DNA of 64,000 nt. Origin: a virus. Below, piece by piece: positions 13,687 to 48,832 of this stretch; position 1 is the first letter of the stretch; the number at the start of each line of letters is the position of its first letter. The notes under the pieces are model-generated. The model searched no databases. It saw only the letters and a program-made list of their open reading frames with translations, and was not told the origin of the DNA. A program made the position numbers and the translations under genes. Location of the stretch: positions 1 to 64,000 of IMG/VR virus record IMGVR_UViG_3300033153_007754, one strand, 5' to 3'.

Positions 13687-13723
13687 ATATAAAAAGACAT
13701 CTTCAGTAAAATAATCTTTCAAA

Positions 13724-13752
13724 TTGACAAAATAATAAACAAATGATATAGT
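13724..13752 (+). promoter_or_regulatory. Sigma70-like promoter
   Basis: TTGACA (13724-13729) and TATAGT (13747-13752) are 17 bases apart. The leader has AACAA-TGATT-TTGTT, again a small hairpin near the predicted 5' end, then TAGGAG. Confidence 0.7.
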
Positions 13753-13791
13753 ATTATAACAATGATTTTGTTGTTTTTATAGGAGCATATT

Positions 13792-14157: not shown

Positions 14158-14227
14158 ATAACGGTAAAATAAACACAAAAACCCAATGAATTAAAATAGT
14201 TGATTTCAATGTCATGAGGTAAAAAAA

Positions 14228-14875
14228 ATGAAAAATAAAAGTGTTAATATAGGTGATTTAATGAATGCTGATATTGGATATAGTGACTCAAAGACACCAA
14301 TTGATACAATCATAGACAGAATGTCTTCAGGTACATATTTTATACCAAAACATCAAAAAAAATATGTATGGGAAGAGAAAATTGTAATCTATTTGGTTGT
14401 ATCATTACTAAAAAATATACCAATCCCAAGCATTTATATGTATTATAATATAAATGATTATAGATATAATATTATTAATGGACAACAAAGGATTGTATAT
14501 TTATTCTTTTTTATGAAAGGTGTATTTCCTATATCAATACACAGAACATTTTATTATAAATTTGATGTAATTAGTGAATTAATTGATAAACATGGAAGCA
14601 GTAAATCACAAAAAGAAAAGAAAGAAATAGAGGTGAAATTAGAAAATTCTTTTGGTTTAGAGTTTAAAGAATTCTCTTATTTAGATTTAAATAATGATAA
14701 AAATGTAGTTATTAGCTACCAGGCTTTTGGTGATGACATAAAGAGATTATTTAATAATAGAACATTAAATCTTGTAGCAGTAGATGTTAAAAAAGATTCT
14801 AATGACATTCTTTCTATATATGATGATATATCTATATTATTAAATAGATTTTTGATTGATGATATAACTTTATGA
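14228..14875 (+). CDS. DUF262 (GmrSD N-terminal/ParB-like) domain protein
   Basis: The 215 residues contain FIPKHQKKYVW, VSLLKNIPIPSIYMY and YNIINGQQRIVYLFFF, the standard DUF262 order with the final DGQQR changed to NGQQR. No nuclease domain follows. It is the second stand-alone DUF262 protein in the window and is only distantly similar to that at 1249. It overlaps the BspA-like gene by 4 bases, indicating co-translation. The same AGGTAAAAAAAATG start context recurs at 15422. Confidence 0.7.
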   Translation: MKNKSVNIGDLMNADIGYSDSKTPIDTIIDRMSSGTYFIPKHQKKYVWEEKIVIYLVVSLLKNIPIPSIYMYYNINDYRYNIINGQQRIVYLFFFMKGVFPISIHRTFYYKFDVISELIDKHGSSKSQKEKKEIEVKLENSFGLEFKEFSYLDLNNDKNVVISYQAFGDDIKRLFNNRTLNLVAVDVKKDSNDILSIYDDISILLNRFLIDDITL

Positions 14876-15411
14876 TGAAATATCAAGTAGAATTTAGTAA
14901 CGGAAAATTAATAATTCGTGATTTTCTTAAATCTTTATTTGTTACCGATTATCGTACAGGTTTTTTAACAAAAAAAGTACAACGATATCAAAACAAAGGT
15001 GACACATTGGGTATTAATAATATTTTCAAGAAATACCCTAACATAAACATCAGTGATTGGGATGTATCAAAACTTCACAACATGAGTCATATGTTTATGG
15101 ATGCAAATACTTTTGATTGTGATATAAGTAATTGGGATGTAAGTGGTGCTACCAATATGAATAGTATGTTTTATGGTGCTACTTCTTTTAATGGTGATTT
15201 AAGTAAATGGGATGTGAGTAATGTTTATGATATGACTGCTATGTTTAAGGATACTGATTCTTTTAATAGTGATATTGGTGGTTGGAATGTTAGCAATGTA
15301 ATTTATATGGAATGGATGTTTTTAAATGCAAAATCCTTTAAACAAGATTTAAGTAACTGGGATGTAAAGAAACACATTAGGGTAAAAAAAATGTTAGGTA
15401 ATATATTATGA
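14872..15411 (+). CDS. BspA-like (DUF285) leucine-rich-type repeat protein
   Basis: The 179 residues contain four DUF285/BspA-type units of about 25 residues (DISNWDVSGATNMNSMFYGA, DLSKWDVSNVYDMTAMFKDT and so on). In bacteria and mycoplasmas such repeats form elongated, often surface-exposed proteins. There is no signal peptide here, so it is presumably cytoplasmic or virion-associated. It overlaps the DUF262 gene by 4 bases. A larger relative lies at 33801-34568 on the other strand. Confidence 0.82.
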   Translation: MMKYQVEFSNGKLIIRDFLKSLFVTDYRTGFLTKKVQRYQNKGDTLGINNIFKKYPNINISDWDVSKLHNMSHMFMDANTFDCDISNWDVSGATNMNSMFYGATSFNGDLSKWDVSNVYDMTAMFKDTDSFNSDIGGWNVSNVIYMEWMFLNAKSFKQDLSNWDVKKHIRVKKMLGNIL

Positions 15412-15421
15412 GGTAAAAAAA

Positions 15422-15883
15422 ATGGAAAATGTTGTCAATTATGAGAACACTGGGTTGAAGGGTGGTTTAATGTATGAATTAAAAGAAAACCCATTTACTG
15501 GTAAGTTTGTCGATTTATATGATGATGGTAATAAATTTTGTGAGATAGATTATGTAGATGGTAAAAAACATGGTAAAGAAATTCATTGGTATGAAAATGG
15601 TAAAAGATATAAAGAATGTAATTACGAAAATGGTAAACGAAATGGTGAACAAACTTATTGGCATAAAAATGGGGATATTCATATAAAAAGAAATTATCTT
15701 AATTATTTTAAAAATGGTTATGAATTTATTTGGTATGAAAATGGTGGTAAACATATAGAACGAAATTATGTATTTGGTTTAAAAGATGGGGAAGAAATAC
15801 ATTGGGATAAAAGTGGTAAGGAAGTAGTAAAATATTATTATAAAGATGGTGGTTTACTTAAAAAGGGGTGTGAAAATGGATAG
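15422..15883 (+). CDS. YwqK-like MORN_2 repeat protein (first gene of a duplicated pair)
   Basis: The 153 residues comprise a standard head (GLMYELKENPFTG) and five units; the fourth begins NYLNYFKNGYEFIW, lacking the HG motif. The ribosome binding site is GAGGT. Its last 8 bases overlap the start of the next copy exactly as in the pair 16702/17279. Confidence 0.86.
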   Translation: MENVVNYENTGLKGGLMYELKENPFTGKFVDLYDDGNKFCEIDYVDGKKHGKEIHWYENGKRYKECNYENGKRNGEQTYWHKNGDIHIKRNYLNYFKNGYEFIWYENGGKHIERNYVFGLKDGEEIHWDKSGKEVVKYYYKDGGLLKKGCENG

Positions 15884-16625
15884 AAAGATAGACAACACAA
15901 ATACACGTGAAATTATAAATTATTATGATGATTTTAACAAGAAATCGGAATGCACACTTGTTAATTATAAACGTGAAGGCAAATATACAAAATGGAAATA
16001 CAACAATGTTTTGTATTATGAAGAATATTATCAATATGGTAAATTAAATGGTAAACAAACCTATTGGTATAAAAATGGTAATAAAAGAAGTGTTTATAAT
16101 TTTGTGAATGGTAAAAAACGTGGTGAGTTTTGTGAATGGTGGGATAATGGTAACAAAAAAAGAATTGGTATTTCATGTGCTCTTTTAGATTTAAAAAGTT
16201 GGTATAGAAGTGGTAAAAGGAAATCTGAAGTTTTCTATAAAAATAAAAACAATAAGAGTGATTTTGAGTTAATAACATGGTATGAAAATGGTAACACTGA
16301 ATTTATAGAGTTTTATAAAAGGGGTTTAGCTGATGGTATTCAAAAAATGTTTTATAAAAATGGGAATAAAAAACACGAAGTAAACACAAAAAATGGTATA
16401 GTATATGGTATCACTTTAAGATGGCATAAAAATGGTGAGTTGGAATACAAAGGTTTTTTAAATGACGACAAACAAGAGGGTGTTATATTAGGGTGGTATG
16501 ATAATGGTAACAAACAATACGAATTAAATTATAAAGATGATAAAAAACATGGTGCATGTGTTTGGTTCTACAAAGATGGAAGTAAACAATATGAATATGA
16601 ATATTTAGATGATATCATAGTATAA
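15876..16625 (+). CDS. YwqK-like MORN_2 repeat protein, FFDE/YYDD-head subtype
   Basis: The ATG at 15876 lies within the end of the upstream gene and gives 249 residues. The head is of the second subtype (IINYYDDFNKKSECTLVNYKREGKYTKW), matching the head of the 17279 gene (TTFFDEEHENKKTDYTLLNWKLDGKYTTW). About eight units follow, one interrupted (ISCALLDLKSWYRSG). Confidence 0.85.
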   Translation: MDRKIDNTNTREIINYYDDFNKKSECTLVNYKREGKYTKWKYNNVLYYEEYYQYGKLNGKQTYWYKNGNKRSVYNFVNGKKRGEFCEWWDNGNKKRIGISCALLDLKSWYRSGKRKSEVFYKNKNNKSDFELITWYENGNTEFIEFYKRGLADGIQKMFYKNGNKKHEVNTKNGIVYGITLRWHKNGELEYKGFLNDDKQEGVILGWYDNGNKQYELNYKDDKKHGACVWFYKDGSKQYEYEYLDDIIV

Positions 16626-16629
16626 TTCC

Positions 16630-16684
16630 TTGACAAATTAATTTTTAAATATACAATGTATTATATAGGTGGTATTATACCACC
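16630..16684 (+). promoter_or_regulatory. Sigma70-like promoter with strong 5' hairpin
   Basis: TTGACA (16630-16635) and TACAAT (16652-16657) are 16 bases apart. GGTGGTA and TACCACC (16668-16684) form a 7-bp stem with a TTA loop at the predicted RNA 5' end, and AGGAGG follows. Confidence 0.72.
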
Positions 16685-16701
16685 ATTCACAGGAGGATAT
16701 T

Positions 16702-17286
16702 ATGTGTAGAATAGCAGTTGATGATGGAAAATTTTATGAATTAAAAGAAAAACCATTTACAGGTGAAGTTAATGAGAAATATACAACTGGTTACATTAAA
16801 AATGGTTTAAAACATGGCTTATGGATTGAATATTATTTTTCAATGGAAACCCAAAAAGAAAGTGAAGAAAATTATAAAGATGGTCTTAAACATGGGAAAG
16901 AAATTGTTTGGTTTAGTAATGGGGTAAAGAAACTGGAAAGGGATTATTTAAATGATGTTTTGGTAGGTAAACAAGCTGAATGGTTTAAAAATGGTAATAA
17001 CAAATCTGAAGAAAATTATAAAGATGGGAAACAAGATGGTTTACAAATTGATTGGTACAAAAATGGAAATAAATATATAGAAACAAATTACAAAGATGGG
17101 AAAGAACATGGTAAGAAAACATGGTGGTATGAGAATGGTAATAAAAAACTGGAAATAAATTATAAAGATGGTGAAGAAGATGGTTTACAAATTTGGTGGG
17201 ATGAAGATGGTAATAAAAAATTAGAAAAATACTACAAAGATGGTAAAGAAATTATATCATTTAATTTGGGGCTTAATTATGCGTAA
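16702..17286 (+). CDS. YwqK-like MORN_2 repeat protein (first gene of the second duplicated pair)
   Basis: Start chosen at ATG 16702 after AGGAGG, giving 194 residues. Head DGKFYELKEKPFTG, then about six very regular units (for example NYKDGKEHGKKTWWYENGNK), among the closest to consensus in the window. It ends 8 bases inside the next gene, as in the 15422/15876 pair. Confidence 0.87.
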   Translation: MCRIAVDDGKFYELKEKPFTGEVNEKYTTGYIKNGLKHGLWIEYYFSMETQKESEENYKDGLKHGKEIVWFSNGVKKLERDYLNDVLVGKQAEWFKNGNNKSEENYKDGKQDGLQIDWYKNGNKYIETNYKDGKEHGKKTWWYENGNKKLEINYKDGEEDGLQIWWDEDGNKKLEKYYKDGKEIISFNLGLNYA

Positions 17287-17761
17287 AGATAATCTTAACA
17301 AAGTTCACATCACTACTTTTTTTGATGAAGAACATGAGAATAAAAAAACTGATTACACACTTCTTAACTGGAAGTTGGATGGCAAATATACCACATGGTT
17401 AAATAACAATCTTTTGTTTTCAATACAGCAGTACAAGGATGGAAAATTAGAAGGGAAATATATTGAATATCACCTAAATGGTGCAATAAAAAGAATCGCT
17501 TATTACAAAGACGATTTATTAAATGGTCAATTAAAATCTTTTTATGAAAATGGTAATAAAAAAGTTGAGTGTACTCTTGTAAATGATGGTATAAATGGTA
17601 AGTATATAAGATGGCATGAAAATGGGAATAAAGAAACAGAATGTAATTACAAAGATGGTTTAAAAGATGGTGAATATATTAGATACCATGAAGATGGTAG
17701 TATCGAATTTAAAGAATTTTGGGAAAATGATGAAATATTAAAAGATAATAATAAAAAGTAA
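17279..17761 (+). CDS. YwqK-like MORN_2 repeat protein, FFDE/YYDD-head subtype
   Basis: The ATG at 17279 overlaps the upstream stop and gives 160 residues. It shares its distinct head with the 15876 gene but has only about five units, so the two second-position genes differ by loss or gain of several 72-bp units. Its weak start is probably served by translational coupling (GGGG at -11). Confidence 0.84.
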   Translation: MRKDNLNKVHITTFFDEEHENKKTDYTLLNWKLDGKYTTWLNNNLLFSIQQYKDGKLEGKYIEYHLNGAIKRIAYYKDDLLNGQLKSFYENGNKKVECTLVNDGINGKYIRWHENGNKETECNYKDGLKDGEYIRYHEDGSIEFKEFWENDEILKDNNKK

Positions 17762-17769
17762 AATAACCC

Positions 17770-17822
17770 TTGATAAATCCGAAAAAAATCCGTATATTAT
17801 AAGCAGATGGTAATTAAGCCAT
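17770..17822 (+). promoter_or_regulatory. Early-type promoter with 5' hairpin
   Basis: TTGATA (17770-17775) and TATATT (17793-17798) are 17 bases apart. The leader ATGG-TAATTAAG-CCAT (17807-17822) is identical to that at 6081-6096. GGGAGGA follows. Confidence 0.78.
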
Positions 17823-17840
17823 AATCCAAGGGAGGATAAT

Positions 17841-18404
17841 ATGAGTAATGAAAACAGTAAATCAAGCGAATTTAGCGACTTTGTTGTAAAAGGTGGTGTT
17901 ATATACGAAAGACAACAAAAAGGTTATACAGGGTCAATAATAAGGCGTTGGGATGATGAAGATGCTGCTGATGATGGTGAAATTAGAAGTATATATAACT
18001 TCAAGAATGGGTTGAAAGATGGTAAATGCATAAAATACCATTGTTATGAAAAAGGTGTGGTTTCAGAAGAAACTAATTATAAAGATGGTGAATATCATGG
18101 TAAATATACTGAATGGGAATGGGACGGAAGCTTAATAAGAGAATATAATTTTAAGAATGGAAAATCAGATGGTATTATGGTTAAATATTATAAAGATGGG
18201 GATAAAGGAAAAAAACATATTCTTACACATAAAAACGATTTACCTCATGGTTTAAGTCAAATGTTTTATGAAGATGGCACTAAAGCTTGTGAAACAACGT
18301 ATGTAAATGGAAAAAAGCATGGTAAAGAAATTTGGTGGGATGAAGATGGCAATAAAGAATCAGAAACACTATACGAAAATGGTGTTAAAATTAAAGAATC
18401 TTAA
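17841..18404 (+). CDS. YwqK-like MORN_2 repeat protein
   Basis: The 187 residues have a head of the VVKGGVIYERQQKGYTG type, shared with the next gene (VIKNGVLYEIKNSGYTG), then an acidic insertion (DDEDAADDGE) and about six units. Single gene between two early-type promoters. Confidence 0.85.
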   Translation: MSNENSKSSEFSDFVVKGGVIYERQQKGYTGSIIRRWDDEDAADDGEIRSIYNFKNGLKDGKCIKYHCYEKGVVSEETNYKDGEYHGKYTEWEWDGSLIREYNFKNGKSDGIMVKYYKDGDKGKKHILTHKNDLPHGLSQMFYEDGTKACETTYVNGKKHGKEIWWDEDGNKESETLYENGVKIKES

Positions 18405-18422
18405 ATAAATCTAAAAAAAAAC

Positions 18423-18475
18423 TTAACAATCCCAAAAAAATCTGTATAATATCAATAAGTGATAATCAAGTCACT
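18423..18475 (+). promoter_or_regulatory. Promoter with variant 5' hairpin
   Basis: TTAACA (18423-18428) and TATAAT (18445-18450) are 16 bases apart. The leader forms AGTGA-TAATCAAG-TCACT (18458-18475). Both stem arms differ from the ATGG/CCAT arms of the other leaders, yet pairing and the loop sequence are kept. Confidence 0.75.
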
Positions 18476-18491
18476 ATTTATAGGGGATATT

Positions 18492-19280
18492 ATGAATAAA
18501 ACTGATTTCGACAATTGTGTGATAAAAAACGGTGTATTATACGAAATAAAAAACAGTGGTTACACTGGGGTTGTCATTAGACAATATGATGATAAAATAA
18601 TTAGTGAAGGGGTTTATAAAAATGGTTTAATACATGGTAAAAACATTCATTATGATGAAAATGGTAAAAAAGAATATGAAATTAATTATAAGAATGGAAA
18701 ACAACATGGTGAATACACTAAATGGTTTGATAATGGTGGGAAACAAACGCAAATGTTTTATGCTGATGGTAAATTAGATGGCATACTTATTGAGTGGGAT
18801 GAAAATGGAAATAAAAGACGTGAAATAAATTATAATAATAAACACACACATTGGTATGAAAATGGTAATAAAAAATGTGAGTGTAACTTAAAAAACAATA
18901 ATAAATATGGTAAAGAAATTCGTTGGTATGAAGATGGAAACATCAAAAGTGAAAATAACCATGAAAATGGTTTATTGCATGGTGTTCAAAAAGAATGGTA
19001 TAAAGATGGTAAGAAAAAAAGTAAGGCGAATTATAGAAATGATAGATTAAATGGTAAAGAAATTATTTGGTTTAGTAATGGTAACAAAAAAAGTGAAACT
19101 AATTATAGAAATGATATGCCAATTGGGAAGGTTAATTTATATCATGAAAATGGGAATAGGAAAAAAGAAATGAATTACAAAAAGGGTGTATTAAATGGTG
19201 ATTATATGTCTTGGTATGAAGATGGGAAAACAAAAAGTCTTTTTTATTATGAAAATGGCAAGAAAAATTATAGTTTATAG
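18492..19280 (+). CDS. YwqK-like MORN_2 repeat protein with an internal unit deletion
   Basis: The ATG at 18492 after AGGGGA gives 262 residues with a GYTG-type head and about ten units. One unit is cut short (NYNNKHTHWYENG), lacking the DGK..HGK part, which looks like an in-frame deletion inside one 72-bp unit. It is followed 9 bases later by the nonsense copy with the same head type. Confidence 0.86.
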   Translation: MNKTDFDNCVIKNGVLYEIKNSGYTGVVIRQYDDKIISEGVYKNGLIHGKNIHYDENGKKEYEINYKNGKQHGEYTKWFDNGGKQTQMFYADGKLDGILIEWDENGNKRREINYNNKHTHWYENGNKKCECNLKNNNKYGKEIRWYEDGNIKSENNHENGLLHGVQKEWYKDGKKKSKANYRNDRLNGKEIIWFSNGNKKSETNYRNDMPIGKVNLYHENGNRKKEMNYKKGVLNGDYMSWYEDGKTKSLFYYENGKKNYSL

Positions 19281-19289
19281 GAGATTAAA

Positions 19290-19736
19290 ATGAATAAAAT
19301 TGATATTAATGATTGTATGGTAATTGATGGTGTATTATATCAAATTGTTGATAATGAATATACTGGTGTTGTTACTGAATAATGGGGTAATGGTGCAAAA
19401 TGTAGTGAGACAAACTATAACAATGGTTTAAAAGATGGTAAAGAAATTTATTGGTATGAAAATGGTAATAAAAAAACTGAATTAAATTATAAAAATGGTA
19501 AACGAAATGGTGAACACACAGAATGGCATGGAAATGGTAATGTATTCATAAAATGTTTTTTTAAAAATGATAAAATAGAGGGTGTTGTTAACGTATATTA
19601 TAATAATGGAAATAAAAAAAATGAATCTAATTATAAAGATGGTGTAAAACATGGAATATATACCGAATGGGATAACAAAGGTAATGAAGTAACTAAAGAA
19701 AAATATGAAAATGGTTTGTTGGTGGTTATACGATAA
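19290..19736 (+). pseudogene. YwqK-like gene interrupted by one in-frame TAA
   Basis: A good ribosome binding site (TAGGAG) and ATG at 19290 open a frame with the family head (CMVIDGVLYQIVDNEYTGVV). It meets TAA at 19380-19382 after 30 codons. The same frame then continues without any stop through about five normal repeat units to TAA at 19734-19736. The neighbouring copy has a glutamine at the equivalent place (IRQYDD versus TE*WGN), so a CAA-to-TAA change explains it. No frameshift is needed. Confidence 0.85.
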
Positions 19737-19816
19737 TGATTCAACAAGGGAAGATGGTGCAACTGGTTTCTGGTACGACTAAAGAATCAAAATAATTAAA
19801 AACAATACACATTTCA

Positions 19817-19841
19817 TTAAATAATCAAAACACATTATAAT
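19817..19841 (+). promoter_or_regulatory. Candidate middle-type promoter
   Basis: TTAAATAAT (19817-19825) and TATAAT (19836-19841) are exactly 10 bases apart, as at 2797 and 4716. It precedes the TTG-started YwqK gene. Confidence 0.48.
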
Positions 19842-19862
19842 ATTCCTTTTGGGGGTATCACT

Positions 19863-20687
19863 TTGAGTGTCAAAAACAATCTTAAAACAGATAATATTTT
19901 ATATAAAAAAGATGTATTTAAATTAGGTGGTATTTTATATACATTAAAAAAACGTGAAATATTTACAGGAAGTATTATTGAAAAATTCCCTTCTGGTGGG
20001 ATGAAATTTAATATAAAATATGAAAATGGTAAAAGACACGGTAAAGAAATTTGGTGGCATGAAAATGGCAACAGAAGTTATGAATGTGATTATGTAAATG
20101 GTAAAAGGGATGGTTATATTAATACATATCACAAAAGTGGTGCAATTCATGAAAAAATCCCATATTTAGATGATGATAAAAATGGAACACATGAAACTTG
20201 GTATGAAAATGGGAATAAATATATAGAACGAAATTATAAATCTGGCATACAAGAGGGTAAAGAAATTTGGTGGCATGAAAACGGTGAAATCAAGATGGTA
20301 TCATGTTATGTGAATGATAAACATATCGGTGAAAAAATAGTCTTTTATATGGATGGTAATAAAAAAGACTTATACTATACTGATGGTAATGGGGATTTCA
20401 GACACACAGAATGGTATAGAAATGGTGAGAAAGAATGTGAAACAAATTATGTAAATGATGAAAAACATGGTCTTCAAATTCAGTGGTATAATAATGGCTG
20501 CAAATACATAGAAACAAATTATAAAAATGGTTTAAAACATGGTAAAGAAACATGGTGGTATAGAAATGGTAAAATAGATGTAGAAGAAAACTATGTAAAT
20601 GGAAAAAAACATGGTATACAAACTTGGTGGTATAGAAATGGTAAGAAAGAATGTGAATATGAATATAAAAATGGTGAGGTGTTATAA
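19863..20687 (+). CDS. YwqK-like MORN_2 repeat protein
   Basis: Start at TTG 19863, 8 bases after GGGGG; no ATG is available nearby. The 274 residues comprise a head (LGGILYTLKKREIFTGSII) and about nine units. One unit carries a deviation (FYMDGNKKDLYYTDGNGDFRHTEW). The stop overlaps the next start (TAATG). Confidence 0.84.
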   Translation: MSVKNNLKTDNILYKKDVFKLGGILYTLKKREIFTGSIIEKFPSGGMKFNIKYENGKRHGKEIWWHENGNRSYECDYVNGKRDGYINTYHKSGAIHEKIPYLDDDKNGTHETWYENGNKYIERNYKSGIQEGKEIWWHENGEIKMVSCYVNDKHIGEKIVFYMDGNKKDLYYTDGNGDFRHTEWYRNGEKECETNYVNDEKHGLQIQWYNNGCKYIETNYKNGLKHGKETWWYRNGKIDVEENYVNGKKHGIQTWWYRNGKKECEYEYKNGEVL

Positions 20688-21454
20688 TGAAAATAGTTGC
20701 AGAATATAACGGTAAATTTTATGAACTAAAAGAAATTACATATACAGGTCAAGCAATTAATGTTGTGGGTGAAGATGGTAGTTATAAAAATGGTTTGAGA
20801 AATGGAAAATTTAAAAGTTTTTATGAGAATGGTAAAGTGAAATATGAGGTTATATTTAAAGATGGCGAATTTGATGGTAAATATACGAAATGGTATGATA
20901 ATGGAAATAAAGAATCTGAAACTAATTTTGATAATGGTGTAGTAAATGGTAAACATATTGTATGGTGGGAAAATGGAAATATAAAAATTGATTCATCATA
21001 TGTTAATGGTAAATTGGATGGTGTAGAACTTTGGTTTTATAAAAATGGTGGTAGCCACTGCAAATTTAATTATAAGGGTTGTTTGTCGCATGGGCTTCAA
21101 ACAAGATGGCATGAGAATGGAAACAAGGAATTAGAACGAAATTATAATGAGGGTAAACGACACGGTAAAGAAATAAAATGGTATTATTACGGGAATATAA
21201 AATGTGTTGCAAATTATAAGGATGATAAATTTCATGGTAACGATAGTGAATGGTATGAAAATGGTAAGAAAAGATATGAATGTAATTATAAAGATGGGGA
21301 TAAACACGGTAAAGAATTAGAATTTTTTGAGAATGGTAATATACGATATGAACGTAATCATAAAGATGGTTATTTCCATGGTGATAGCATTGAATATTAT
21401 AAAGATGGAAGAAAAAAAAATATGTGTGTTTATGTTGATGGATATATTAAATAA
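20687..21454 (+). CDS. YwqK-like MORN_2 repeat protein
   Basis: The 255 residues have the head NGKFYELKEITYTGQ and about nine units with good WYENG signatures. It is coupled to the upstream copy by a one-base TAATG overlap. The pair TNFDNGVVNGKHIVWWENG is almost the same as a unit of the 11285 gene (SDFDNGVLNGKHILWWKNG), suggesting exchange of units between distant copies. Confidence 0.86.
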   Translation: MKIVAEYNGKFYELKEITYTGQAINVVGEDGSYKNGLRNGKFKSFYENGKVKYEVIFKDGEFDGKYTKWYDNGNKESETNFDNGVVNGKHIVWWENGNIKIDSSYVNGKLDGVELWFYKNGGSHCKFNYKGCLSHGLQTRWHENGNKELERNYNEGKRHGKEIKWYYYGNIKCVANYKDDKFHGNDSEWYENGKKRYECNYKDGDKHGKELEFFENGNIRYERNHKDGYFHGDSIEYYKDGRKKNMCVYVDGYIK

Positions 21455-21477
21455 TAAAATATGATAAGGTGTAAAAC

Positions 21478-21936
21478 ATGTTTAAAATAAATGGTGAAAA
21501 CTTCACAGGTGTGGTTGAAAAAAGTGGTGAATATAAGATTGAATATAAAGATGGTTTAAAAGATGGTACAGAAATAATATTGTATAGTAATGGAAATATG
21601 AAGAATTTAATAAATTATAAAAATGGTTTATTGGATGGTAAATTTTGTGAATGGGTTTGGTTTGGAGAAAAAGATGTTGTTAAATTTTTTAAGGATGGTA
21701 AAAGGCATGGATTAGAAACTTCTTGGTATTACAATGGCAATAAGGAATCAGAAGTAAATTATAAAGATGGTAAAAAACATGGTAAGGCTACTTGGTGGTT
21801 CTATAATGGTAAAATAGAATATGAAGGTAATTATATCGATGGTGAAAAAGAAGGTAGGTTTACTAGTTGGCTTGAAGATGGTGAAATTGAATATTTTATT
21901 AATTTTGTTAATGGTGTTAAACAAGATAATGTATAG
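21478..21936 (+). CDS. YwqK-like MORN_2 repeat protein, short
   Basis: The 152 residues have a minimal head (INGENFTGVVEKSG), similar in form to the 2525 gene, and five units. Start after AAGGTG. It is followed by the next copy after 8 bases. Confidence 0.85.
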   Translation: MFKINGENFTGVVEKSGEYKIEYKDGLKDGTEIILYSNGNMKNLINYKNGLLDGKFCEWVWFGEKDVVKFFKDGKRHGLETSWYYNGNKESEVNYKDGKKHGKATWWFYNGKIEYEGNYIDGEKEGRFTSWLEDGEIEYFINFVNGVKQDNV

Positions 21937-21944
21937 GGGATATA

Positions 21945-22895
21945 ATGACTGAAAAGATTGTAAATAATGGTAAAAATGTGGTTATTAAAGATGGCTTATT
22001 ACATATATTAACGACAAAACCATATACAGGTGTAATTGTGTATAATTCTGTTAGTGGTGAAAAACGTGTTGAGACAAGTTACAAAGATGGGAAAGAACAT
22101 GGTAAAGAAATTTGGTATTATGACACTGGTGAAATAATATCCGAAAGGAATTACAAGTATAATAAAAAACATGGTAAATTTATCGATAGATATAGAAATG
22201 GAAATAAAAAATATGAACTCTTTTTTGTGGATGGGTTACAAGAAGGTAAGGAATTTTGGTGGTATGAAGATGGAACATGTATTACATATCGTGTTGGTGG
22301 TAAAAAAGAAGTTGAAATTAATTATAAGAATGGAAAAAAACATGGTAAAGAAATATGGTATTATAGAAAGATGAATAAAGAAATTGAGGTTGATTATAAA
22401 GATGGCTTGAAACATGGGAAATATATTGTTTGTGATGAATTTGGAAGTGTATTGAGATTAATAGACTATAAAAATGGTAAAAAAGATGGTAAAGAATTAG
22501 GATGGTATTGGAATGGTAATAAAGAATTTGATATAGACTATAAAAATGGTGAAAATCATGGTCAATATAAACAATGGTACCGTGATGGCAATAAACACAT
22601 TCTTTCAAATTACTTGGATGGGGAAAGACATGGCGAATGTTTTTGTTGGTATGAAAATGGAATAATATCTAGCAAAGAAAACTATAAATATGGTAAATTG
22701 GATGGTCTTTATTTAAGTTACTATCGAAATGGTAACCCTTGGCTTGAAATTAATTATAAAGATAATTTACAACATGGTAAAACAATGGTGTATTATGAAA
22801 ATGGTAATAAAGAATATGAAGATTATTATGAATTTGATGTAGAAAAAAAACGCAGGAAAAAATGGTTTTCTTTTGGTTTAAGAAAATTTTGGTAA
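21945..22895 (+). CDS. YwqK-like MORN_2 repeat protein, long
   Basis: The 316 residues carry the head KDGLLHILTTKPYTGVIVY and about eleven units. Two units are irregular (EDGTCITYRVGGKKEVEI and IWYYRKMNKEIEV). The C-terminus is basic (KKRRKKWFSFGLRKFW), unlike other copies, and might bind nucleic acid or a membrane. Confidence 0.86.
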   Translation: MTEKIVNNGKNVVIKDGLLHILTTKPYTGVIVYNSVSGEKRVETSYKDGKEHGKEIWYYDTGEIISERNYKYNKKHGKFIDRYRNGNKKYELFFVDGLQEGKEFWWYEDGTCITYRVGGKKEVEINYKNGKKHGKEIWYYRKMNKEIEVDYKDGLKHGKYIVCDEFGSVLRLIDYKNGKKDGKELGWYWNGNKEFDIDYKNGENHGQYKQWYRDGNKHILSNYLDGERHGECFCWYENGIISSKENYKYGKLDGLYLSYYRNGNPWLEINYKDNLQHGKTMVYYENGNKEYEDYYEFDVEKKRRKKWFSFGLRKFW

Positions 22896-22940
22896 ATATA
22901 AAAAATATAATATAATTAGATTTTACTTATAAGGAATAAA

Positions 22941-23618
22941 ATGAAAGAAGGAAATCCAAAATATTTAACAGAAATGAGTGACGGCTTATTACATGAAATA
23001 AACCAAAAGCCATACACAGGTGTTTTAAGAACTAGATTCGCTGATGGCAACATTAAATCTGAAGAATACTATAAAGATGGTTTGAAGGATGGAAAATATT
23101 CACAGTGGAATGATGGCGGGGTTTTATTATCAGAGAAAAATTACAGAAATGGGTTAAAACATGGTCGACAACATCGAATGTATGGGGAAGGTCTTGTCGA
23201 ATATATATATAATTATAAAGATGGCAAACCAATTAATGAGTTCACTGATTATTATGAAGATGGTAATATTGAACGAAAAATATTATTTAATGATGATGGA
23301 AAAAAACATGGGAAATGTTTTAATAATTTTGAGAATAATAAAAGACACATCGAAGAAGAATATGAAAATGGTAAATCAATCGGGCAATATAAACAATGGT
23401 ATGAAAATGGGAATGTGAATCTAATTGTAAACTATGAAAATGGTGTACAGGAAGGTGAAACAAGAAGGTATCATGAAAATGGTGAACTTCATATTAAATT
23501 GTTTTATAAAAATGGTCTTGAAGATGGTCTACAAAGTAATTATGATACTGATGGGAAATTAATCAAAACTTATCTGTATAGTCAAGGTGAATTAATTGAT
23601 GCTTCAGATGGTGAATAA
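22941..23618 (+). CDS. YwqK-like MORN_2 repeat protein
   Basis: The 225 residues have the head SDGLLHEINQKPYTGVLR, related to that of the preceding gene, and about eight units with frequent loss of the WY pair. Start after AAGGAA. It is followed by the first copy of a repeated 37-bp spacer. Confidence 0.85.
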   Translation: MKEGNPKYLTEMSDGLLHEINQKPYTGVLRTRFADGNIKSEEYYKDGLKDGKYSQWNDGGVLLSEKNYRNGLKHGRQHRMYGEGLVEYIYNYKDGKPINEFTDYYEDGNIERKILFNDDGKKHGKCFNNFENNKRHIEEEYENGKSIGQYKQWYENGNVNLIVNYENGVQEGETRRYHENGELHIKLFYKNGLEDGLQSNYDTDGKLIKTYLYSQGELIDASDGE

Positions 23619-23649
23619 CATATATAATAATTTTATTTAAGGGGTAAAA
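23613..23649 (+). repeat. 37-bp direct repeat spacer, first copy
   Basis: The end of the 22941 gene, the spacer and the ribosome binding site (TTTAAGGGG) are identical over 37 bases to 24267-24303. Confidence 0.9.
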
Positions 23650-23651
23650 AA

Positions 23652-24272
23652 ATGGAAATAGTAGTAGATGATAAGAATCTTGTGGTTGAAAATGGTGTGG
23701 TATATGAGTTGACACCACTTGTGTTTACTGGGAAGGGTATTTATACGGCTCAAAATGGACGAACACGTGAAACAATTTATGTGGATGGAAAGAGGCATGG
23801 CAAAGAAATTACTAGGTATGAAGATGGTGTTATACTATCTGAATGTAATTACGAAAATGGTGAATTGAATGGTAAAAAATATATATGGGATGAAGATGGA
23901 ACTAAAAGACTTGAATATAATTATAAAGATGGAAAAGAACATGGGTGTAGTTTAGAGTGGAATAAAAAAGGTGTTTTGAATATGGAAGAAAACTATGTAA
24001 ATGGAAAAAAACATGGTAAACATATTTTATGTTGGGAAAATGGTGATAAAATGTGTGAAGAAAATTATATTGATGGAAAAAAGGATGGAATTCAGAGCCA
24101 TTGGTACGAAAATGATAGTAAACATTTTTTGGAAACATATCAAAATGGTGAACTCAATGGAAAATATATTATTTGGGGTGAAGATGGCAATAAAGAAAGT
24201 GAAATGATTTACAAAGATGGTGTTAAGATGGTTTATTACACGGAAGTCAAAGATGGTACTAAGGGCGAATAA
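23652..24272 (+). CDS. YwqK-like MORN_2 repeat protein
   Basis: The 206 residues have the head ENGVVYELTPLVFTGKG and seven to eight units. Identical 37-bp spacers lie on both sides, so this gene plus one spacer looks like a duplicated module. RBS AAGGGG. Confidence 0.86.
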   Translation: MEIVVDDKNLVVENGVVYELTPLVFTGKGIYTAQNGRTRETIYVDGKRHGKEITRYEDGVILSECNYENGELNGKKYIWDEDGTKRLEYNYKDGKEHGCSLEWNKKGVLNMEENYVNGKKHGKHILCWENGDKMCEENYIDGKKDGIQSHWYENDSKHFLETYQNGELNGKYIIWGEDGNKESEMIYKDGVKMVYYTEVKDGTKGE

Positions 24273-24303
24273 CATATATAATAATTTTATTTAAGGGGTA
24301 AAA
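24267..24303 (+). repeat. 37-bp direct repeat spacer, second copy
   Basis: Perfect copy of 23613-23649, from GAATAACATAT to the start of the next gene. Perfect conservation of a non-coding spacer between paralogues implies recent duplication or gene conversion. Confidence 0.9.
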
Positions 24304-25637
24304 TGAAAAGAGTTGGTTTTAAGGATGTTGTTACAAAAAAAGATGGTCTGATATATGAAGTAAGACAAAATCCATTCACTGGTATAATTGAAAGTGATGA
24401 TGAGAGTGGTGTTTTTTTTAAAGATGTTATTAAAGATGGTTCACCACATGGTGTTTGTAAAGAATGGTATGAAGATGGAAATAAAAAAATGACCACAAGG
24501 TTTAAAAATGGGTTACTGGAAGGTGAAAGAATTAAATACCATCAGGGTGGTGGAGTATCTGAACGTGCTACATACAAAAATGATATTTTAGATGGTAAAA
24601 AACTAGTATTTAATGAACATGGTGTAAAACAAATGGATATTGATTACAAAGATGGTTTTTTCCATGGTAAAGAAATTTTATATTATTCAGATGGTTCAAA
24701 ACATACTGAAATAGACTACAAGAAAGGTTTAGTAGATGGTGAATTCAAATTCTGGTATAAAAATGGTTTATTAGGGTTTTGTAGGAAATTTGAAAATAAC
24801 ATTGAAGTTAATGGACAGGTTGATTATTTTTGGAGTGATGGAACTAAAAAAAAGACATATTATATTGTAAATGGTGTTAAAGATGGTGATGAAGTAATTT
24901 GGAATGAAGAAGGTAAAAAGGTATTTGAAACTACATGGAAGGAAGGAAAACAAGATGGTGAATCTACTACATGGCATTATATTAAAACAATAGCTAGAAT
25001 ATATGAAAAAGGTCTTTTAATATCAGAAAAGAATTATGAAAATGATATATTACATGGTGTTGTTCGTACATGGTGGAACACTGGCAACAAAAGAAGTTTC
25101 GTTGAATATATTGTTGGAAAAAAATATGGTAAAAGACTTCTTTGGTATAAAGATGGAAGTAAAGAAACAGAAGAAAATTATATGAATGATGTGTTAAATG
25201 GTAAATCTATTCACTATTATTATAGCATTGAAGATGATATTGCTGATGGCACTAAAATGTCTGAATATGAATTTAAGGATGGGAAATTAGATGGTAGACA
25301 ATTAAAGTATCATGAAAATGGTAAGAAGTCTTCACAAATAAATTATAATGATGGTAAAGAACATGGTGTGTTAACCACTTGGTATGAAGATGGCAATAAG
25401 AGAAGTGAAGTGAGTTATAAAGATGGTAAAAGACACGGTAAACACATTGAATGGCATGAAAATGGTAATAAAAAAACGGAATTAAATTATAAAAATGGCC
25501 TGTTACATGGAATGGGTTTTCATTGGGATGAAGAGGGTTCACTAATTTATGAAATAGATTATGACAATGAAACAGACGGTTGTTTAATATTCCCACCATT
25601 TCCGGTGGTTACTAAAGAATCCGAAGGGAATGAATAA
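24303..25637 (+). CDS. YwqK-like MORN_2 repeat protein, longest copy
   Basis: The 444 residues have the head KDGLIYEVRQNPFTGIIE and about fifteen units, including several divergent ones in the middle (YIKTIARIYEKG, SIEDDIADGTKMSEY). The last 20 residues leave the repeat pattern. It closes the array; the next gene is an unrelated SLOG-like protein. The number of units is roughly seven times that of the 2525 gene. Confidence 0.88.
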   Translation: MKRVGFKDVVTKKDGLIYEVRQNPFTGIIESDDESGVFFKDVIKDGSPHGVCKEWYEDGNKKMTTRFKNGLLEGERIKYHQGGGVSERATYKNDILDGKKLVFNEHGVKQMDIDYKDGFFHGKEILYYSDGSKHTEIDYKKGLVDGEFKFWYKNGLLGFCRKFENNIEVNGQVDYFWSDGTKKKTYYIVNGVKDGDEVIWNEEGKKVFETTWKEGKQDGESTTWHYIKTIARIYEKGLLISEKNYENDILHGVVRTWWNTGNKRSFVEYIVGKKYGKRLLWYKDGSKETEENYMNDVLNGKSIHYYYSIEDDIADGTKMSEYEFKDGKLDGRQLKYHENGKKSSQINYNDGKEHGVLTTWYEDGNKRSEVSYKDGKRHGKHIEWHENGNKKTELNYKNGLLHGMGFHWDEEGSLIYEIDYDNETDGCLIFPPFPVVTKESEGNE

Positions 25638-25653
25638 TAAATAAGGAGTTGAT

Positions 25654-26265
25654 ATGAGTAAAATGTTATTAAGTGGTTTAAATATTGGGATATCTGATAA
25701 TATTCCTGAAATAAATTCTAATAATAACTTAGGTTACGAAATTTTAGAGTTTTTACAGGTATTTAGTGGATTAGTCTTTAAATATGGTGCAAGAATAACA
25801 CATGATTCACACCCATATTTAACACCTATGTTAATAAAACAATCACAACGATTTAAAACAAATAACGTACAACCATTAACACTTATTATGTCTGAATTAG
25901 AATATAACAACCATCTTAATAAAAAATATTATAATGAGGGTTCTAATTTAATTATTGCTAAGGAAATTGATGTTAAAAAAGAATTCACATCTAAAATAAA
26001 TGTTTTAATAATAATTGATTATAGAAATGATGGTATTAATGGTTTAACACCAGGTACACAAGAGAGTTTTAATATTGCTTTAAAAAATGACATTCCAGTT
26101 ATATTTTTACCACTTTATAAATATAAATATGAGGAACTTAATAAAATTGAATTGGTGTTTAATATAGACAACATCAAAAAAGAAGAATTAAATTCAGCTA
26201 ATGAAACATATTCTTATAGTGGTTTTTTATTTAATAAATTAATTGAGTTTAATAAAAATAGGTAA
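25654..26265 (+). CDS. SLOG-like nucleotide-binding protein
   Basis: The 203 residues begin LSGLNIGISDNIPE, followed by LVFKYGARITHDSHPYLTPML, which fits the SLOG/LOG-like Rossmann pattern (GISxS, then xxxLVxxGxxxxxGGHPxLTP). SLOG proteins bind nucleotide ligands or process nucleotide derivatives and occur in conflict systems. The usual GGHP is changed to DSHP. It is 2 bases from the guanylate kinase gene, so the two are probably co-transcribed. Ribosome binding site AAGGAG. Confidence 0.5.
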   Translation: MSKMLLSGLNIGISDNIPEINSNNNLGYEILEFLQVFSGLVFKYGARITHDSHPYLTPMLIKQSQRFKTNNVQPLTLIMSELEYNNHLNKKYYNEGSNLIIAKEIDVKKEFTSKINVLIIIDYRNDGINGLTPGTQESFNIALKNDIPVIFLPLYKYKYEELNKIELVFNIDNIKKEELNSANETYSYSGFLFNKLIEFNKNR

Positions 26266-44101: not shown

Positions 44102-44956
44102 TCATGTTCTTTTAAGTGTTTCACCACATTGTATCTTTTCAGCTATTTCAGTAAGTCTTTTAGCAGATTTCATTGACCACCTATTTTCTATTAAAAATGT
44201 TTTAATTAAATTAGTGTTTAAATAAAATTCTTTATTTTTTAATTCCTTTAAAACATCCACTGCTTTGTTATAATCCAATGGGTGTGATAATGGTGCTGAA
44301 AGATTTATAGTACGACTTAATCTTAATAATTCTTTTTTTATATCATTACTTAATACCCCATATTTTTCAATAATTCCAGGTAAATTATTAAGAAATAAAC
44401 CAATAGCTTTACCCCTATGCGATACTAACGATTTTTCTTCATTTGTTAATTGTGCTGCTGATTTCTGTAATTCAACATCAAAAAATATTGAGTCATAACC
44501 AAAGCCATTTCCGCCAATTGCACTTTTTAAAATTTCTCCATTCCATTCACCATTAAAATCACATAAAAATCCATCTTTCCCATATAACACAAGGCATGTT
44601 TTAAAACGAGCGGTTCTTTGATTTGCATTTGTGGCATCTTCCATATTCTTCAATAAAAAATCAATCCTGTCTTTATCTGATTTCCCAGTTCCCCCATATC
44701 TTGCAGAATAAACACCAGGTTCACCATTTAAGAAATCAACTTCTAAACCAGAATCATCAGCCAATGTTAATAAAGAGGTAGTTTCAAAACCAGCCTTTGC
44801 CTTTATTAATGCATTTTCATAAATAGTTACACCAGTTTCTTCTATGTCATCAAGATTTGTATCATATAGCGTTTTTATTTTAATACCAAAAGGTTTAAGC
44901 ATTCTTTCAAATTCACGTATTTTTCCTTTATTTTTTGTTGCAATAAATAATTCCAT
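44102..44956 (-). CDS. rdgB: RdgB/Ham1-like non-canonical purine NTP pyrophosphatase with C-terminal extension
   Basis: The first 200 of 284 residues match RdgB/Ham1: ATKNKGKIREF (6-16), ADDSGLEVDFLNGEPGVYSARY (SxLxVxxLxGxPGVxSARY) and GFGYDSIFF, then SHRGKA. The family hydrolyses (d)ITP and (d)XTP to monophosphates and is normally about 200 residues. The extra 85 residues (GVLSNDIKKELLRLSRTINL...NRWSMKSAKRLTEIAEKI) are helical and unrecognised. In a phage it could clean the nucleotide pool or handle modified dNTPs. Confidence 0.8.
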   Translation of the reverse strand: MELFIATKNKGKIREFERMLKPFGIKIKTLYDTNLDDIEETGVTIYENALIKAKAGFETTSLLTLADDSGLEVDFLNGEPGVYSARYGGTGKSDKDRIDFLLKNMEDATNANQRTARFKTCLVLYGKDGFLCDFNGEWNGEILKSAIGGNGFGYDSIFFDVELQKSAAQLTNEEKSLVSHRGKAIGLFLNNLPGIIEKYGVLSNDIKKELLRLSRTINLSAPLSHPLDYNKAVDVLKELKNKEFYLNTNLIKTFLIENRWSMKSAKRLTEIAEKIQCGETLKRT

Positions 44957-46128: not shown

Positions 46129-46248
46129 ATGAATGAGAAAAAAAGTAAATGTAATAAATGTGGTAAAACAATGTTTTTAAACGAAAACAAAACTGTTTAT
46201 GAATGTGGGTGTGGAAACAAAGAAAATGTTAAAATACTTTTAGGTTAA
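46129..46248 (+). CDS. Tiny zinc-ribbon protein
   Basis: GGAGTG precedes ATG 46129 and gives 39 residues. CNKC (residues 8-11) and CGC (about 27-29) form a zinc-ribbon-like set with only three to four cysteines in a very small protein. It resembles the zinc-binding half of transcription- or replication-associated ribbons but cannot be assigned. It ends 14 bases before the convergent end of tnpB. Confidence 0.6.
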   Translation: MNEKKSKCNKCGKTMFLNENKTVYECGCGNKENVKILLG

Positions 46249-46262
46249 ACTTCAGAGTCATA

Positions 46263-47882
46263 CTAAACTTGTAAGAACCTGGAAGGTTCCCAAGTCTTCC
46301 TTATTATATGACCCTCTTTTCCACTTTCAAAAAAATCTGTTATAATTTTCTTTACTGCAGAATGTTTTAAATTCTTTTTACAATTCCATTCATATCCATT
46401 AAATTCAAGAAGTTTTTTATTTAGAACATCTAAAGTTATTCTTTCTTTAATATTAATGGATGAATTATAATCAGCATTTAAAGTTTTATTACATTTTGTA
46501 CATTTGAAAACTTCTTGCTCTTTTCTATTATTAGAATCTATATTTCCACAAGAATTACATCCCTGAGATGTATATTCCGGATGAATATAAGAAACATTTA
46601 CATTATGTTTGTGAGCTATTTTTCTTATTTTTGTTTTTAAAGAACTTAAATTTAGTAATCTTATCAGTCTGCCATTATTAATATTAAATTCTTTATTATT
46701 ACTTCTTAATTTTGATATTAAATCTAAATCTTCAAGAACTAAATGATTAAAGCCTTTGGACTTAGCTTTTTTGATTAATTCTACTGATTTTTCAATAATC
46801 ATATTTTGAATAACAAGTAACCATCTATCATATTTCTTTCTTCGTTTTACTGACAATGCCTTAGATTTTCTATTATCTATTTTTTTTAAGAATTCAGTAT
46901 ATCTACTCATCAAGTCTCTATCATAATCTATTGTGAAACCACCTGATGTAGAAAATAAATTATGTTTAATATTAACATCTATTCCTAGAAAATTAAAATT
47001 ATTAGTAGGAATTTCTTCAATTCCTTTCTTTGAAAGGATAATTCTTTCTATTTTTTTACCATTAAAATGAATAGTATAAATTTTAGAAAATTCTTTTTTA
47101 TTTCCATGATATTTATTAGATATTTTTACTGGAACATGTAAACCTTTTTTATAATTATCATATCCACCAACAGATATAAATCCATTTACTTTAGATTTAT
47201 TATTTTTATTATCATTGATAATATTTATTTTTATCCTACTTTGAGATTTAAAAGATAATGATTTGAAATTGTGTACTATTATTGTTTTCAATAATCTATT
47301 TCTTTTAGATAAAGCTAGTTTTAATAATCTATTTAAGCTAAACTTATTAATAGTATCAAGTACTTGAATGTAAAATATTTTTATACTTTCATTCTTGAAA
47401 TCATCTTCTTTTATTTTATTATTTAAATATCTTTCTATCTCTTCATATCCATATTTAGATAGAAAAGACAAGGTTTTTGTTAATCTTGTTGTTTTATATT
47501 TCAGTTCAAAAGATTTTAAATCATTTTTCTTATGAAATGAAGTATTTTTTTTATAATATTTAATATTTATTGACTTTTGTATTTTAAAGCTTAAGTTAGT
47601 TTTTACGCTTTTAAAACTATTTTGATAAGTTGTCATAACTTCAGTAACTGCCCACTCTTTGTCTTTTCCTGTAAGATTATTGATTTTTCCTTTTGTGTAT
47701 TTTTTAATAAAATCGAATTTACTCATATTACTATGTATAATAATATCTTCTTGAATTAATTTAGAAATTTTATTTTTAAACAAGTTTATATCTTTTGCTT
47801 TTTGATAAATCTCTTGATATTTTTTATCATTTAGATTATCAATATATAAAAATTTAGATAATACCTGTTTATTTTTAATCAT
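46263..47882 (-). CDS. tnpB: TnpB-like RNA-guided nuclease (IS607/IS605 OrfB type)
   Basis: The 539 residues contain the three RuvC acidic residues in context: GIDVN (D302), LVLEDLD (E384) and LNADYNSS (D471). The zinc ribbon CNSC...CTKC (C442, C445, C461, C464) lies between the second and third. TnpB proteins use a guide RNA from the transposon end to cut DNA. This one is longer than typical TnpB (about 400) because of a 290-residue N-terminal part. All catalytic residues are present, so it is probably active rather than a dead repressor type. It is preceded by a MerR-type HTH peptide as in IS607. Confidence 0.85.
   Translation of the reverse strand: MIKNKQVLSKFLYIDNLNDKKYQEIYQKAKDINLFKNKISKLIQEDIIIHSNMSKFDFIKKYTKGKINNLTGKDKEWAVTEVMTTYQNSFKSVKTNLSFKIQKSINIKYYKKNTSFHKKNDLKSFELKYKTTRLTKTLSFLSKYGYEEIERYLNNKIKEDDFKNESIKIFYIQVLDTINKFSLNRLLKLALSKRNRLLKTIIVHNFKSLSFKSQSRIKINIINDNKNNKSKVNGFISVGGYDNYKKGLHVPVKISNKYHGNKKEFSKIYTIHFNGKKIERIILSKKGIEEIPTNNFNFLGIDVNIKHNLFSTSGGFTIDYDRDLMSRYTEFLKKIDNRKSKALSVKRRKKYDRWLLVIQNMIIEKSVELIKKAKSKGFNHLVLEDLDLISKLRSNNKEFNINNGRLIRLLNLSSLKTKIRKIAHKHNVNVSYIHPEYTSQGCNSCGNIDSNNRKEQEVFKCTKCNKTLNADYNSSINIKERITLDVLNKKLLEFNGYEWNCKKNLKHSAVKKIITDFFESGKEGHIIRKTWEPSRFLQV
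46267..46295 (-). ncRNA. Hairpin at the 3' end of tnpB, candidate end of the guide RNA scaffold
   Basis: ACTTG...CAAGT (outer) and GAACCT-TCC-AGGTTC (inner) form a two-part hairpin covering the last ten codons of tnpB and ending just before its TAG. In characterised TnpB systems the guide RNA overlaps the 3' end of the gene and finishes with such a stem next to the guide. The downstream guide would begin near the TAG/TATGACTC region. The 5' extent of the RNA cannot be set. Confidence 0.5.
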
Positions 47883-47901
47883 TTTTCGGATAACACCTTA
47901 A

Positions 47902-48006
47902 TTAATTCTTCTGTTTTTCGATTTTTCCTTCTCTCTTCCAAACCCAAAGAGTTTGCTTAGTTATTCCTAAGTCTTTAGCTAATTTTGATATTCTTATTTG
48001 CTGCAT
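47902..48006 (-). CDS. MerR-type helix-turn-helix peptide, IS607 TnpA remnant
   Basis: GGAGG at the right distance and ATG 48006 encode 34 residues: ISKLAKDLGITKQTLWVWKR is the excisionase/MerR-like HTH that begins IS607 TnpA. The serine recombinase domain is missing. In the -1 frame after codon 31 (GAAAAAC) coding-like sequence continues (TEELIKVLSEK) to a TGA that overlaps the tnpB start as ATGA, so a 42-residue form may be the ancestral or a frameshifted product. A strong sigma70-like promoter precedes it. Confidence 0.72.
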   Translation of the reverse strand: MQQIRISKLAKDLGITKQTLWVWKREGKIEKQKN

Positions 48007-48024
48007 AAAACCTCCAATATTATA

Positions 48025-48052
48025 ATTATAATATGTTTTCAGGATTTGTCAA
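48025..48052 (-). promoter_or_regulatory. Sigma70-like promoter for the HTH peptide and tnpB
   Basis: TTGACA (48047-48052) and TATAAT (48025-48030) are 16 bases apart. The -35 context TTGACAAATCC is the same as in the phage early-type promoters. A TATAAATA box (48097-48104, minus strand) further upstream could add late expression. Confidence 0.72.
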
Positions 48053-48091
48053 GTTAATATTGTAGTAATCATATGAATACTTACAGGTAAG

Positions 48092-48832
48092 CTAAGTATT
48101 TATAATAGACCAATAAACTAAAAACATCATATAAAACTTAATATAATCAACATCATTTTCAAGGTTAATGTCTGATTGTAGGCTGAAACTGGGTGTTACC
48201 TGTATGTTTGCATTACTTTCGTGGTTAAGTGTGCCTGAATCGAATAATACAAGGTTTTGTGGTATATTATATGTGTTTAATATATAATAAATTAACTTTC
48301 TATAATTATCTAATCCATTTACACCATCTTCAATATCAGTATCTATATCAACTTCAGACTTATATGGTAAATTAGATATTAAAAAATCATTTAAATGTTC
48401 CACTGCTGTAAAAGCTGTTTTAATATAATCCTCTGTATAAGCATCTGTAAAAGATACTTCAGAATCATTTTGTAACTGATATAAGTAATTAAGTAATAAT
48501 CTATTTTTTTTAACTACAAAATCTCTAATAAATCTAACAGGATTATATATAAGAGTTTTAACTAAAGATTTATATTTATCAGAGTTGGAAAGATTTAAAA
48601 TTAAAGGGTTATCTATAGTATCATTATTCAACAATAAAACTAACCAGTATAATAATTCATCATCAAAATTTTGGCTGGATATATTGTCTATCCTTTCCCT
48701 TGAATTAATATTTATAAATTTCTCAATTATTTGGTTATTTTCTATATATAGTCTTTTGTTTTTAAAAACATCAGGTAGATTATAACCATCTATAGTAACA
48801 ACATCTAAAAAATCATAATAATTTAAACTCAT
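48092..48832 (-). CDS. Baseplate wedge protein, gp53-like
   Basis: The 246 residues begin YYDFLDVVTIDGYNLPDVFKNKRLY, and the segment RERIDNISSQNFDDELLYWLVLLLNN matches the LysM-like first part of T4 gp53 (P-E-x-IA-x-x-xY-x-x-x-x-x-W-x-ILxxN). The C-terminal part is unrecognised; T4 gp53 is 196 residues. It is 1 base from the hub gene and in the same late operon. Assignment is by motif pattern and position. Confidence 0.5.
   Translation of the reverse strand: MSLNYYDFLDVVTIDGYNLPDVFKNKRLYIENNQIIEKFININSRERIDNISSQNFDDELLYWLVLLLNNDTIDNPLILNLSNSDKYKSLVKTLIYNPVRFIRDFVVKKNRLLLNYLYQLQNDSEVSFTDAYTEDYIKTAFTAVEHLNDFLISNLPYKSEVDIDTDIEDGVNGLDNYRKLIYYILNTYNIPQNLVLFDSGTLNHESNANIQVTPSFSLQSDINLENDVDYIKFYMMFLVYWSIINT

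What the first reader, a model, noticed from the sequence alone, without database searches (positions are those of the whole stretch)
46263..48052. Intact TnpB preceded by a stand-alone MerR-type HTH peptide inside the tail-gene region
A 34-codon HTH peptide resembling the first 30 residues of IS607 TnpA replaces the full serine recombinase. The element cannot move itself, yet tnpB keeps D302, E384, D471 and both CxxC pairs. It has a phage-style promoter (TTGACAAATCC) and possibly a late box. This suggests a domesticated RNA-guided nuclease with its own small regulator, perhaps acting like a homing endonuclease or against competing phages.
Basis: partly seen in the sequence, partly recalled or inferred. 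Interest (0 to 1): 0.78.

Follow-up and report, generated by a model that had tools for sequence, protein, structure and literature searches.

The report
Phage-borne IS607 relic with intact TnpB
A large phage carries a jumping gene from bacteria that lost its transposase in one deletion but kept its RNA-guided DNA cutter, now under a phage-type promoter; the supposed separate regulator peptide is the leftover front end of the broken transposase.

Summary
In detail: at 46263-47882 (-) there is an intact 539-aa TnpB (D302, E384, D471, C442/C445/C461/C464), preceded by a 34-aa MerR-type HTH ORF (47902-48006), with no serine recombinase. The interpretation needs correcting. The closest relatives (52-60% identity in the C-terminal part) are copies of a multi-copy IS607-family element in Campylobacteraceae MAGs. 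One has a full 202-aa TnpA just before tnpB. In the window, the HTH breaks off after GKIE, and the tail of that same TnpA (KTEELIK...) continues in another frame to a TGA overlapping the tnpB start. So the 'stand-alone HTH' is the scar of a frame-shifting internal deletion in tnpA, not a purpose-built regulator. The right end shares the host element's terminal omegaRNA helix and GACTCT end, so the guide should read the right flank. The promoter in front belongs to a promoter class of this phage and is absent from host left ends. Thermus phage YS40_Isch shows an independent tnpA deletion of the same type. Most likely it is an immobile (or trans-mobilised) IS607 derivative whose TnpB may still protect or drive it by cutting uninserted alleles. 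Domestication for phage defence is not shown. No related phage with an empty site was found.

The parts
46254..48108 (-). IS607-family element derivative (limits inferred): LE core CT at 48107-48108, RE core CT at 46254-46255
   Evidence: RE ends ACTCT like the distinct host REs; LE limit inferred from GTCT at 48107-48110, the motif seen in about 25 of 30 host left flanks. LE sequence similarity itself is not significant.
47902..48006 (-). 34-aa MerR/IS607-TnpA HTH ORF: 5' remnant of tnpA
   Evidence: 17 of 27 residues identical to host TnpA residues 2-28
47879..47932 (-). out-of-frame remnant of the TnpA C-terminus (RRKNRKTEELIKVLSEK*), its TGA overlapping the tnpB ATG
   Evidence: aligns to TnpA RRTKRKTEELIKELKRK, score 55; 0 of 5000 shuffles reach it (maximum 48)
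46263..47882 (-). intact tnpB, 539 aa, RuvC D302/E384/D471 and two CxxC pairs, long REC region
46254..46315 (-). 3' end of the predicted omegaRNA/reRNA scaffold; terminal helix AGGGUCAU (46308-46315) / AUGACUCU (46254-46261)
   Evidence: same terminal helix as host AGGGUUGCC/GGUGACUCU, kept through changed pairs; window fold z -2.4, host fold z -3.3
46234..46253 (-). predicted guide GAAGUUUAACCUAAAAGUAU... (right flank)
   Evidence: first base after the RE core by comparison with host REs; no second copy in the 153.5-kb record
48025..48052 (-). promoter TTGACA-N16-TATAAT of a phage promoter class
   Evidence: 21.5 bits with a matrix built without it; about 18 such sites in 153 kb, none in shuffles; 24 host LEs score at most 7.1
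48092..48832 (-). flanking tail/baseplate-like gene; its last codons (..YWS|IINT*) appear to be supplied by the LE, and the joined flanks would read ..YWSEV*
   Evidence: (weak baseplate wedge match)
46129..46248 (+). 39-aa zinc-ribbon-like ORF convergent to the insert; the guide is complementary to its 3' end

Best explanation
This is an IS607-family insertion sequence of a type that is multi-copy in Campylobacteraceae, inserted at the 3' end of a phage tail gene. It has lost most of tnpA by one internal deletion that fused the HTH codons out of frame to the last codons of tnpA. tnpB and the right-end guide-RNA scaffold remain intact and are read from a phage-class promoter. Shown: the tnpA scar, intact TnpB motifs, shared right end and helix, and promoter class. 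Inferred: the transcript is processed to a guide RNA reading 5'-GAAGUUUAACCUAAAAG..., TnpB cuts copies of the phage that lack the insert (target next to GTCT), and repair from an inserted copy keeps or spreads the element, a homing-like drive without transposition. It may still move if a host TnpA acts in trans.
For: Closest relatives are Campylobacteraceae copies. Full TnpA + tnpB in G002:C22. Out-of-frame TnpA tail with ATGA overlap in the window, 0 of 5000 shuffles. RE and terminal helix shared. Core/TAM rule GTCT|...|CT; joined flanks give a clean tail-gene stop. Phage-class promoter absent from host LEs. The same deletion junction at several host loci indicates that tnpA-deleted copies spread in trans. 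Independent parallel in YS40_Isch versus TMA. In IS607 TnpBs the right-flanking nucleotide is part of the scaffold (PMC10711439). TnpB works as a gene drive on plasmids (PMC11870625).
Against: No uninserted relative was found, so neither the insertion site nor drive is proven. The window LE is not significantly similar to host LEs, so the left limit is inferred. No RNA or activity data. Selection on tnpB after the tnpA loss could not be measured: the branch is long and third codon positions are near saturation.
Confidence: 0.75

Rival explanations
1. Domesticated system: the HTH peptide is a selected small repressor that binds the promoter and controls an RNA-guided nuclease used for homing or against competing phages.
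For: Open HTH ORF with its own ribosome site and a strong phage-class promoter. A similar HTH-only + tnpB arrangement in Thermus phage YS40_Isch, where the HTH shows mostly third-position differences from TMA TnpA, codon positions 4/2/13.
Against: The peptide ends in a frame-shift scar with the TnpA tail still visible after it. Decayed host copies carry the same kind of remnant. None of 120 other TnpB loci with upstream sequence has an HTH-only ORF at the sensitivity used.
Confidence: 0.12
2. Inert passenger: a recent tnpA-deleted copy moved into the phage in trans by a host TnpA. TnpB is intact only because the event is recent, with no function for the phage.
For: tnpA-deleted copies with one junction occur at several host loci. 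The out-of-frame TnpA tail is still recognisable. Only one phage population is known to carry it.
Against: A phage-class promoter lies where host elements have none. tnpB is fully open although about 6% of single substitutions in it would make a stop. No closer element copy (above 60%) was found in the host genomes held.
Confidence: 0.3
3. A phage type V CRISPR effector (Cas12f-like) rather than TnpB.
For: Length and N-terminal region resemble Cas12f2/Cas12u profiles and structures.
Against: No CRISPR array in the record. The 3' end carries an IS607 right end/omegaRNA helix, and relatives are IS copies.
Confidence: 0.03

Closest known systems
IS607-family elements of Campylobacteraceae MAGs (JALTGP01, JAMOOP01)
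   Same: TnpB 52-60% identical over its C-terminal part, HTH, TnpA C-terminal tail, ATG/stop overlap, RE ending GACTCT, terminal omegaRNA helix
   Different: They occur in many copies, at least one with full TnpA; the window copy lacks the recombinase domain, has an unlike LE and a phage-class promoter, and its tnpB runs up to the right end
Thermus phage YS40_Isch tnpB locus (MK257744) versus the IS607 of phage TMA
   Same: Phage-borne IS607 HTH remnant directly followed by an intact tnpB after an internal tnpA deletion
   Different: In-frame deletion, unrelated element and phage; both Thermus TnpBs read NAQVN in the third RuvC motif instead of NAD.N
TnpB gene drive of IS200/IS605 elements in plasmids (PMC11870625)
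   Same: Proposed action: guide taken from the flank, cleavage of uninserted alleles
   Different: IS200/IS605 with HUH TnpA, on plasmids, shown experimentally; here only inferred
TldR, phage-encoded TnpB-derived repressors (PMC13418256 abstract)
   Same: Phage-encoded, TnpB-derived, no transposase
   Different: From my own knowledge TldRs have lost RuvC catalytic residues; here all are kept

Membership tests
IS607 family | serine recombinase TnpA with N-terminal MerR-type HTH | tested here: not met
   only the HTH and an out-of-frame C-terminal tail remain; full TnpA exists in relatives. It is filed as a derivative, not an autonomous member
IS607 family | element ends joined by a matching dinucleotide core | tested here: inconclusive
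   CT core at both ends in host copies; RE met in the window, LE inferred; no empty site
TnpB (OMEGA) nucleases | RuvC D/E/D and CxxC...CxxC zinc finger | tested here: met
TnpB (OMEGA) nucleases | structured guide RNA overlapping the 3' end of tnpB and ending at the right end | tested here: met
   predicted terminal helix shared with relatives; the RNA itself was not observed
TnpB (OMEGA) nucleases | RNA-guided DNA cleavage next to a TAM | not testable with these tools
   needs experiment; candidate TAM GTCT from host left flanks
Cas12f / type V CRISPR | associated CRISPR array | tested here: not met
   no 20-mer repeated three times with array spacing in 153.5 kb
TldR (nuclease-dead TnpB) | loss of RuvC catalytic residues | tested here: not met
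   D302/E384/D471 present
homing-type element | cleaves the uninserted allele of the same site | not testable with these tools
   guide matches the flank by position; no uninserted relative found

The most novel reading that the evidence does not exclude
Phages repeatedly convert IS607 elements into immobile, RNA-guided homing cassettes: tnpA is trimmed to its HTH, tnpB and its guide are kept and put under a phage promoter, and the leftover HTH still acts as a small autoregulator. The window and YS40_Isch would be two independent cases.
Probability: 0.15. Interest if true: 0.65.

Novelty: new member of a known kind. Interest (0 to 1): 0.35.

Why it matters
It gives a clear case, with the deletion scar still readable, of an IS607 element in a phage that lost its transposase but kept an apparently intact RNA-guided nuclease under a phage-type promoter. 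Together with YS40_Isch it makes a simple question testable: do phages keep TnpB because it drives its own site through mixed infections? It also warns that short 'stand-alone HTH' ORFs beside tnpB can be tnpA remnants rather than regulators.

Tried and rejected
Search for close TnpB relatives in viral contigs: only the same virus, identical over 13.6 kb. Search for phages with the neighbouring tail genes or the joined empty site: none. LE similarity to host LEs: not significant. Late box: at chance. CRISPR array: none. HTH-only ORFs before 120 other TnpBs: none. Codon-position test of selection on tnpB: positions differ 0.37/0.27/0.47, too saturated to separate the phage branch. CRISPR spacers of host G002 against the phage: no 14-base match in the few spacers available, so the host is not proven. 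An earlier idea that the insert truncates the zinc-ribbon ORF was dropped once host REs fixed the right limit. A Ham1-like NTPase search in the host family was uninformative about the host. One search was a mistaken placeholder query. The AlphaFold model has low overall confidence (pLDDT 59.6; RuvC about 80-90) and its best matches are Cas12f/TnpB folds.

Full report
What is there. The window is the first 64 kb of a 153.5-kb virus record with 26.8% GC. On the minus strand, 46263-47882 encodes a 539-aa TnpB without internal stops. Nineteen bases before it lies a 34-aa ORF with a MerR-type HTH. No recombinase gene is present. It is the only TnpB in the record.

Where it comes from. Phages in public records have only distant TnpBs (under 30% identity over longer matches). 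The closest relatives in 84,980 genomes are in two Campylobacteraceae MAGs (58-60%). In these MAGs and three more genomes of the family related ends or genes are found, and right ends occur 22 times in one genome and 18 in another, so the element is multi-copy. In G002:C22 the element has a complete 202-aa IS607 TnpA that overlaps tnpB.

What the HTH peptide is. Residues IRISKLAKDLGITKQTLWVWKREGKIE match host TnpA residues 2-28 (17 of 27 identical). Directly after that, in a shifted frame, the DNA reads RRKNRKTEELIKVLSEK and a TGA that overlaps the tnpB start (ATGA), much as host tnpA and tnpB overlap. Host TnpA has RRTKRKTEELIKELKRK near its C-terminus. 0 of 5000 shuffles of the same DNA score as well, observed 55 against a maximum of 48 (single-base shuffles). 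One internal deletion with a frame shift explains the whole 'stand-alone HTH'.

This kind of deletion recurs. In G002 at least two, probably three, loci (C94, C130, C25) share one and the same tnpA deletion junction while their left flanks differ, so tnpA-less copies have multiplied, most simply by TnpA acting in trans. In phages, YS40_Isch has a 44-aa HTH followed by tnpB, where the related phage TMA has a full TnpA; the deletion there is in frame and independent.

Ends and guide. Host right ends finish ...GGTGACTC (or ...GGTAACTC), then T, then unique sequence. About 25 of 30 host left ends begin G-TCT. This gives a CT core with a GT before it, a candidate TAM. The window right end finishes ...TATGACTC, then T (46254). 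The scaffold's last helix in the window, AGGGUCAU/AUGACUCU, has the same place and start as host AGGGUUGCC/GGUGACUCU, with changed but still paired positions. That the fixed right-flank nucleotide belongs to the scaffold agrees with published work on IS607 TnpB (PMC10711439). The left end is less sure: its sequence is not significantly like host left ends. The only GTCT within 200 nt upstream of the HTH lies in the last codons of the tail gene (48107-48110). Joining the flanks there gives ...VYWSEV* for the tail gene. By my rough estimate from base composition such a combination would arise by chance in several per cent of cases, so this is an inference.

Promoter. The box CTTGACAAATCC in front of the HTH belongs to a promoter class of this phage with about 18 sites in 153 kb, most of them just upstream of phage genes. 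A matrix built without it gives 21.5 bits, and shuffles give none. The 24 host left ends scanned reach at most 7.1 bits. So expression in the phage seems to be under phage control, whatever the origin of that sequence. The 'late box' is at chance.

How it most likely works. Shown: remnant tnpA, intact tnpB, right-end scaffold, phage-type promoter. Inferred: tnpB mRNA yields a guide RNA reading the right flank. The guide has no second match in the record, so its natural target is the uninserted allele in related phages. Cutting that allele favours the inserted one in mixed infections, as shown for IS200/IS605 TnpB on plasmids (PMC11870625). Whether this confers anything on the phage beyond keeping the element is open. 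The inert-passenger reading remains a serious rival, and the dedicated-regulator reading is unlikely.

Limits. One virus population only (identical contigs). No empty site. Phage host unproven: the Campylobacteraceae link rests on the element alone. No RNA or activity data.

Noticed in passing
G000:C1:128090-131966 (L009:7090-10966), outside the window, same phage: Apparently complete type IV CRISPR-Cas locus: Cas6, Csf1, a 400-aa Csf2/Cas7 ORF with a Cas11-type match in its residues 49-158, a CysH-like PAPS reductase, Csf3; no CRISPR array found.
   Followed up: partly
L012 and L018 (Thermus phages YS40_Isch and TMA): Both IS607 TnpBs read NAQVN at the third RuvC motif, where NAD.N is usual, so the third catalytic Asp seems replaced although the proteins are otherwise intact.
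   Followed up: no
window 6000-26000: Many paralogous genes built of 72-nt repeats (MORN-like..NGK..YKDGK..), and genes with 75-nt PARCEL-type repeats near 15.1 kb and 34.1 kb.
   Followed up: no
window 499, 6045, 17770, 28784, 29566, 59460 and further sites to G000 position 152840: Extended phage promoter class CTTGACAAATCCnnAAAAA..TATAcT..TAAATAGATGG, followed by a repeated GATGGNAATTAAGCCAT leader element in the 5' regions.
   Followed up: partly
window 44102-44956 (-): Ham1-type nucleotide pyrophosphatase gene (Pfam 1.4e-56) with a C-terminal extension, in the tail-gene region.
   Followed up: no
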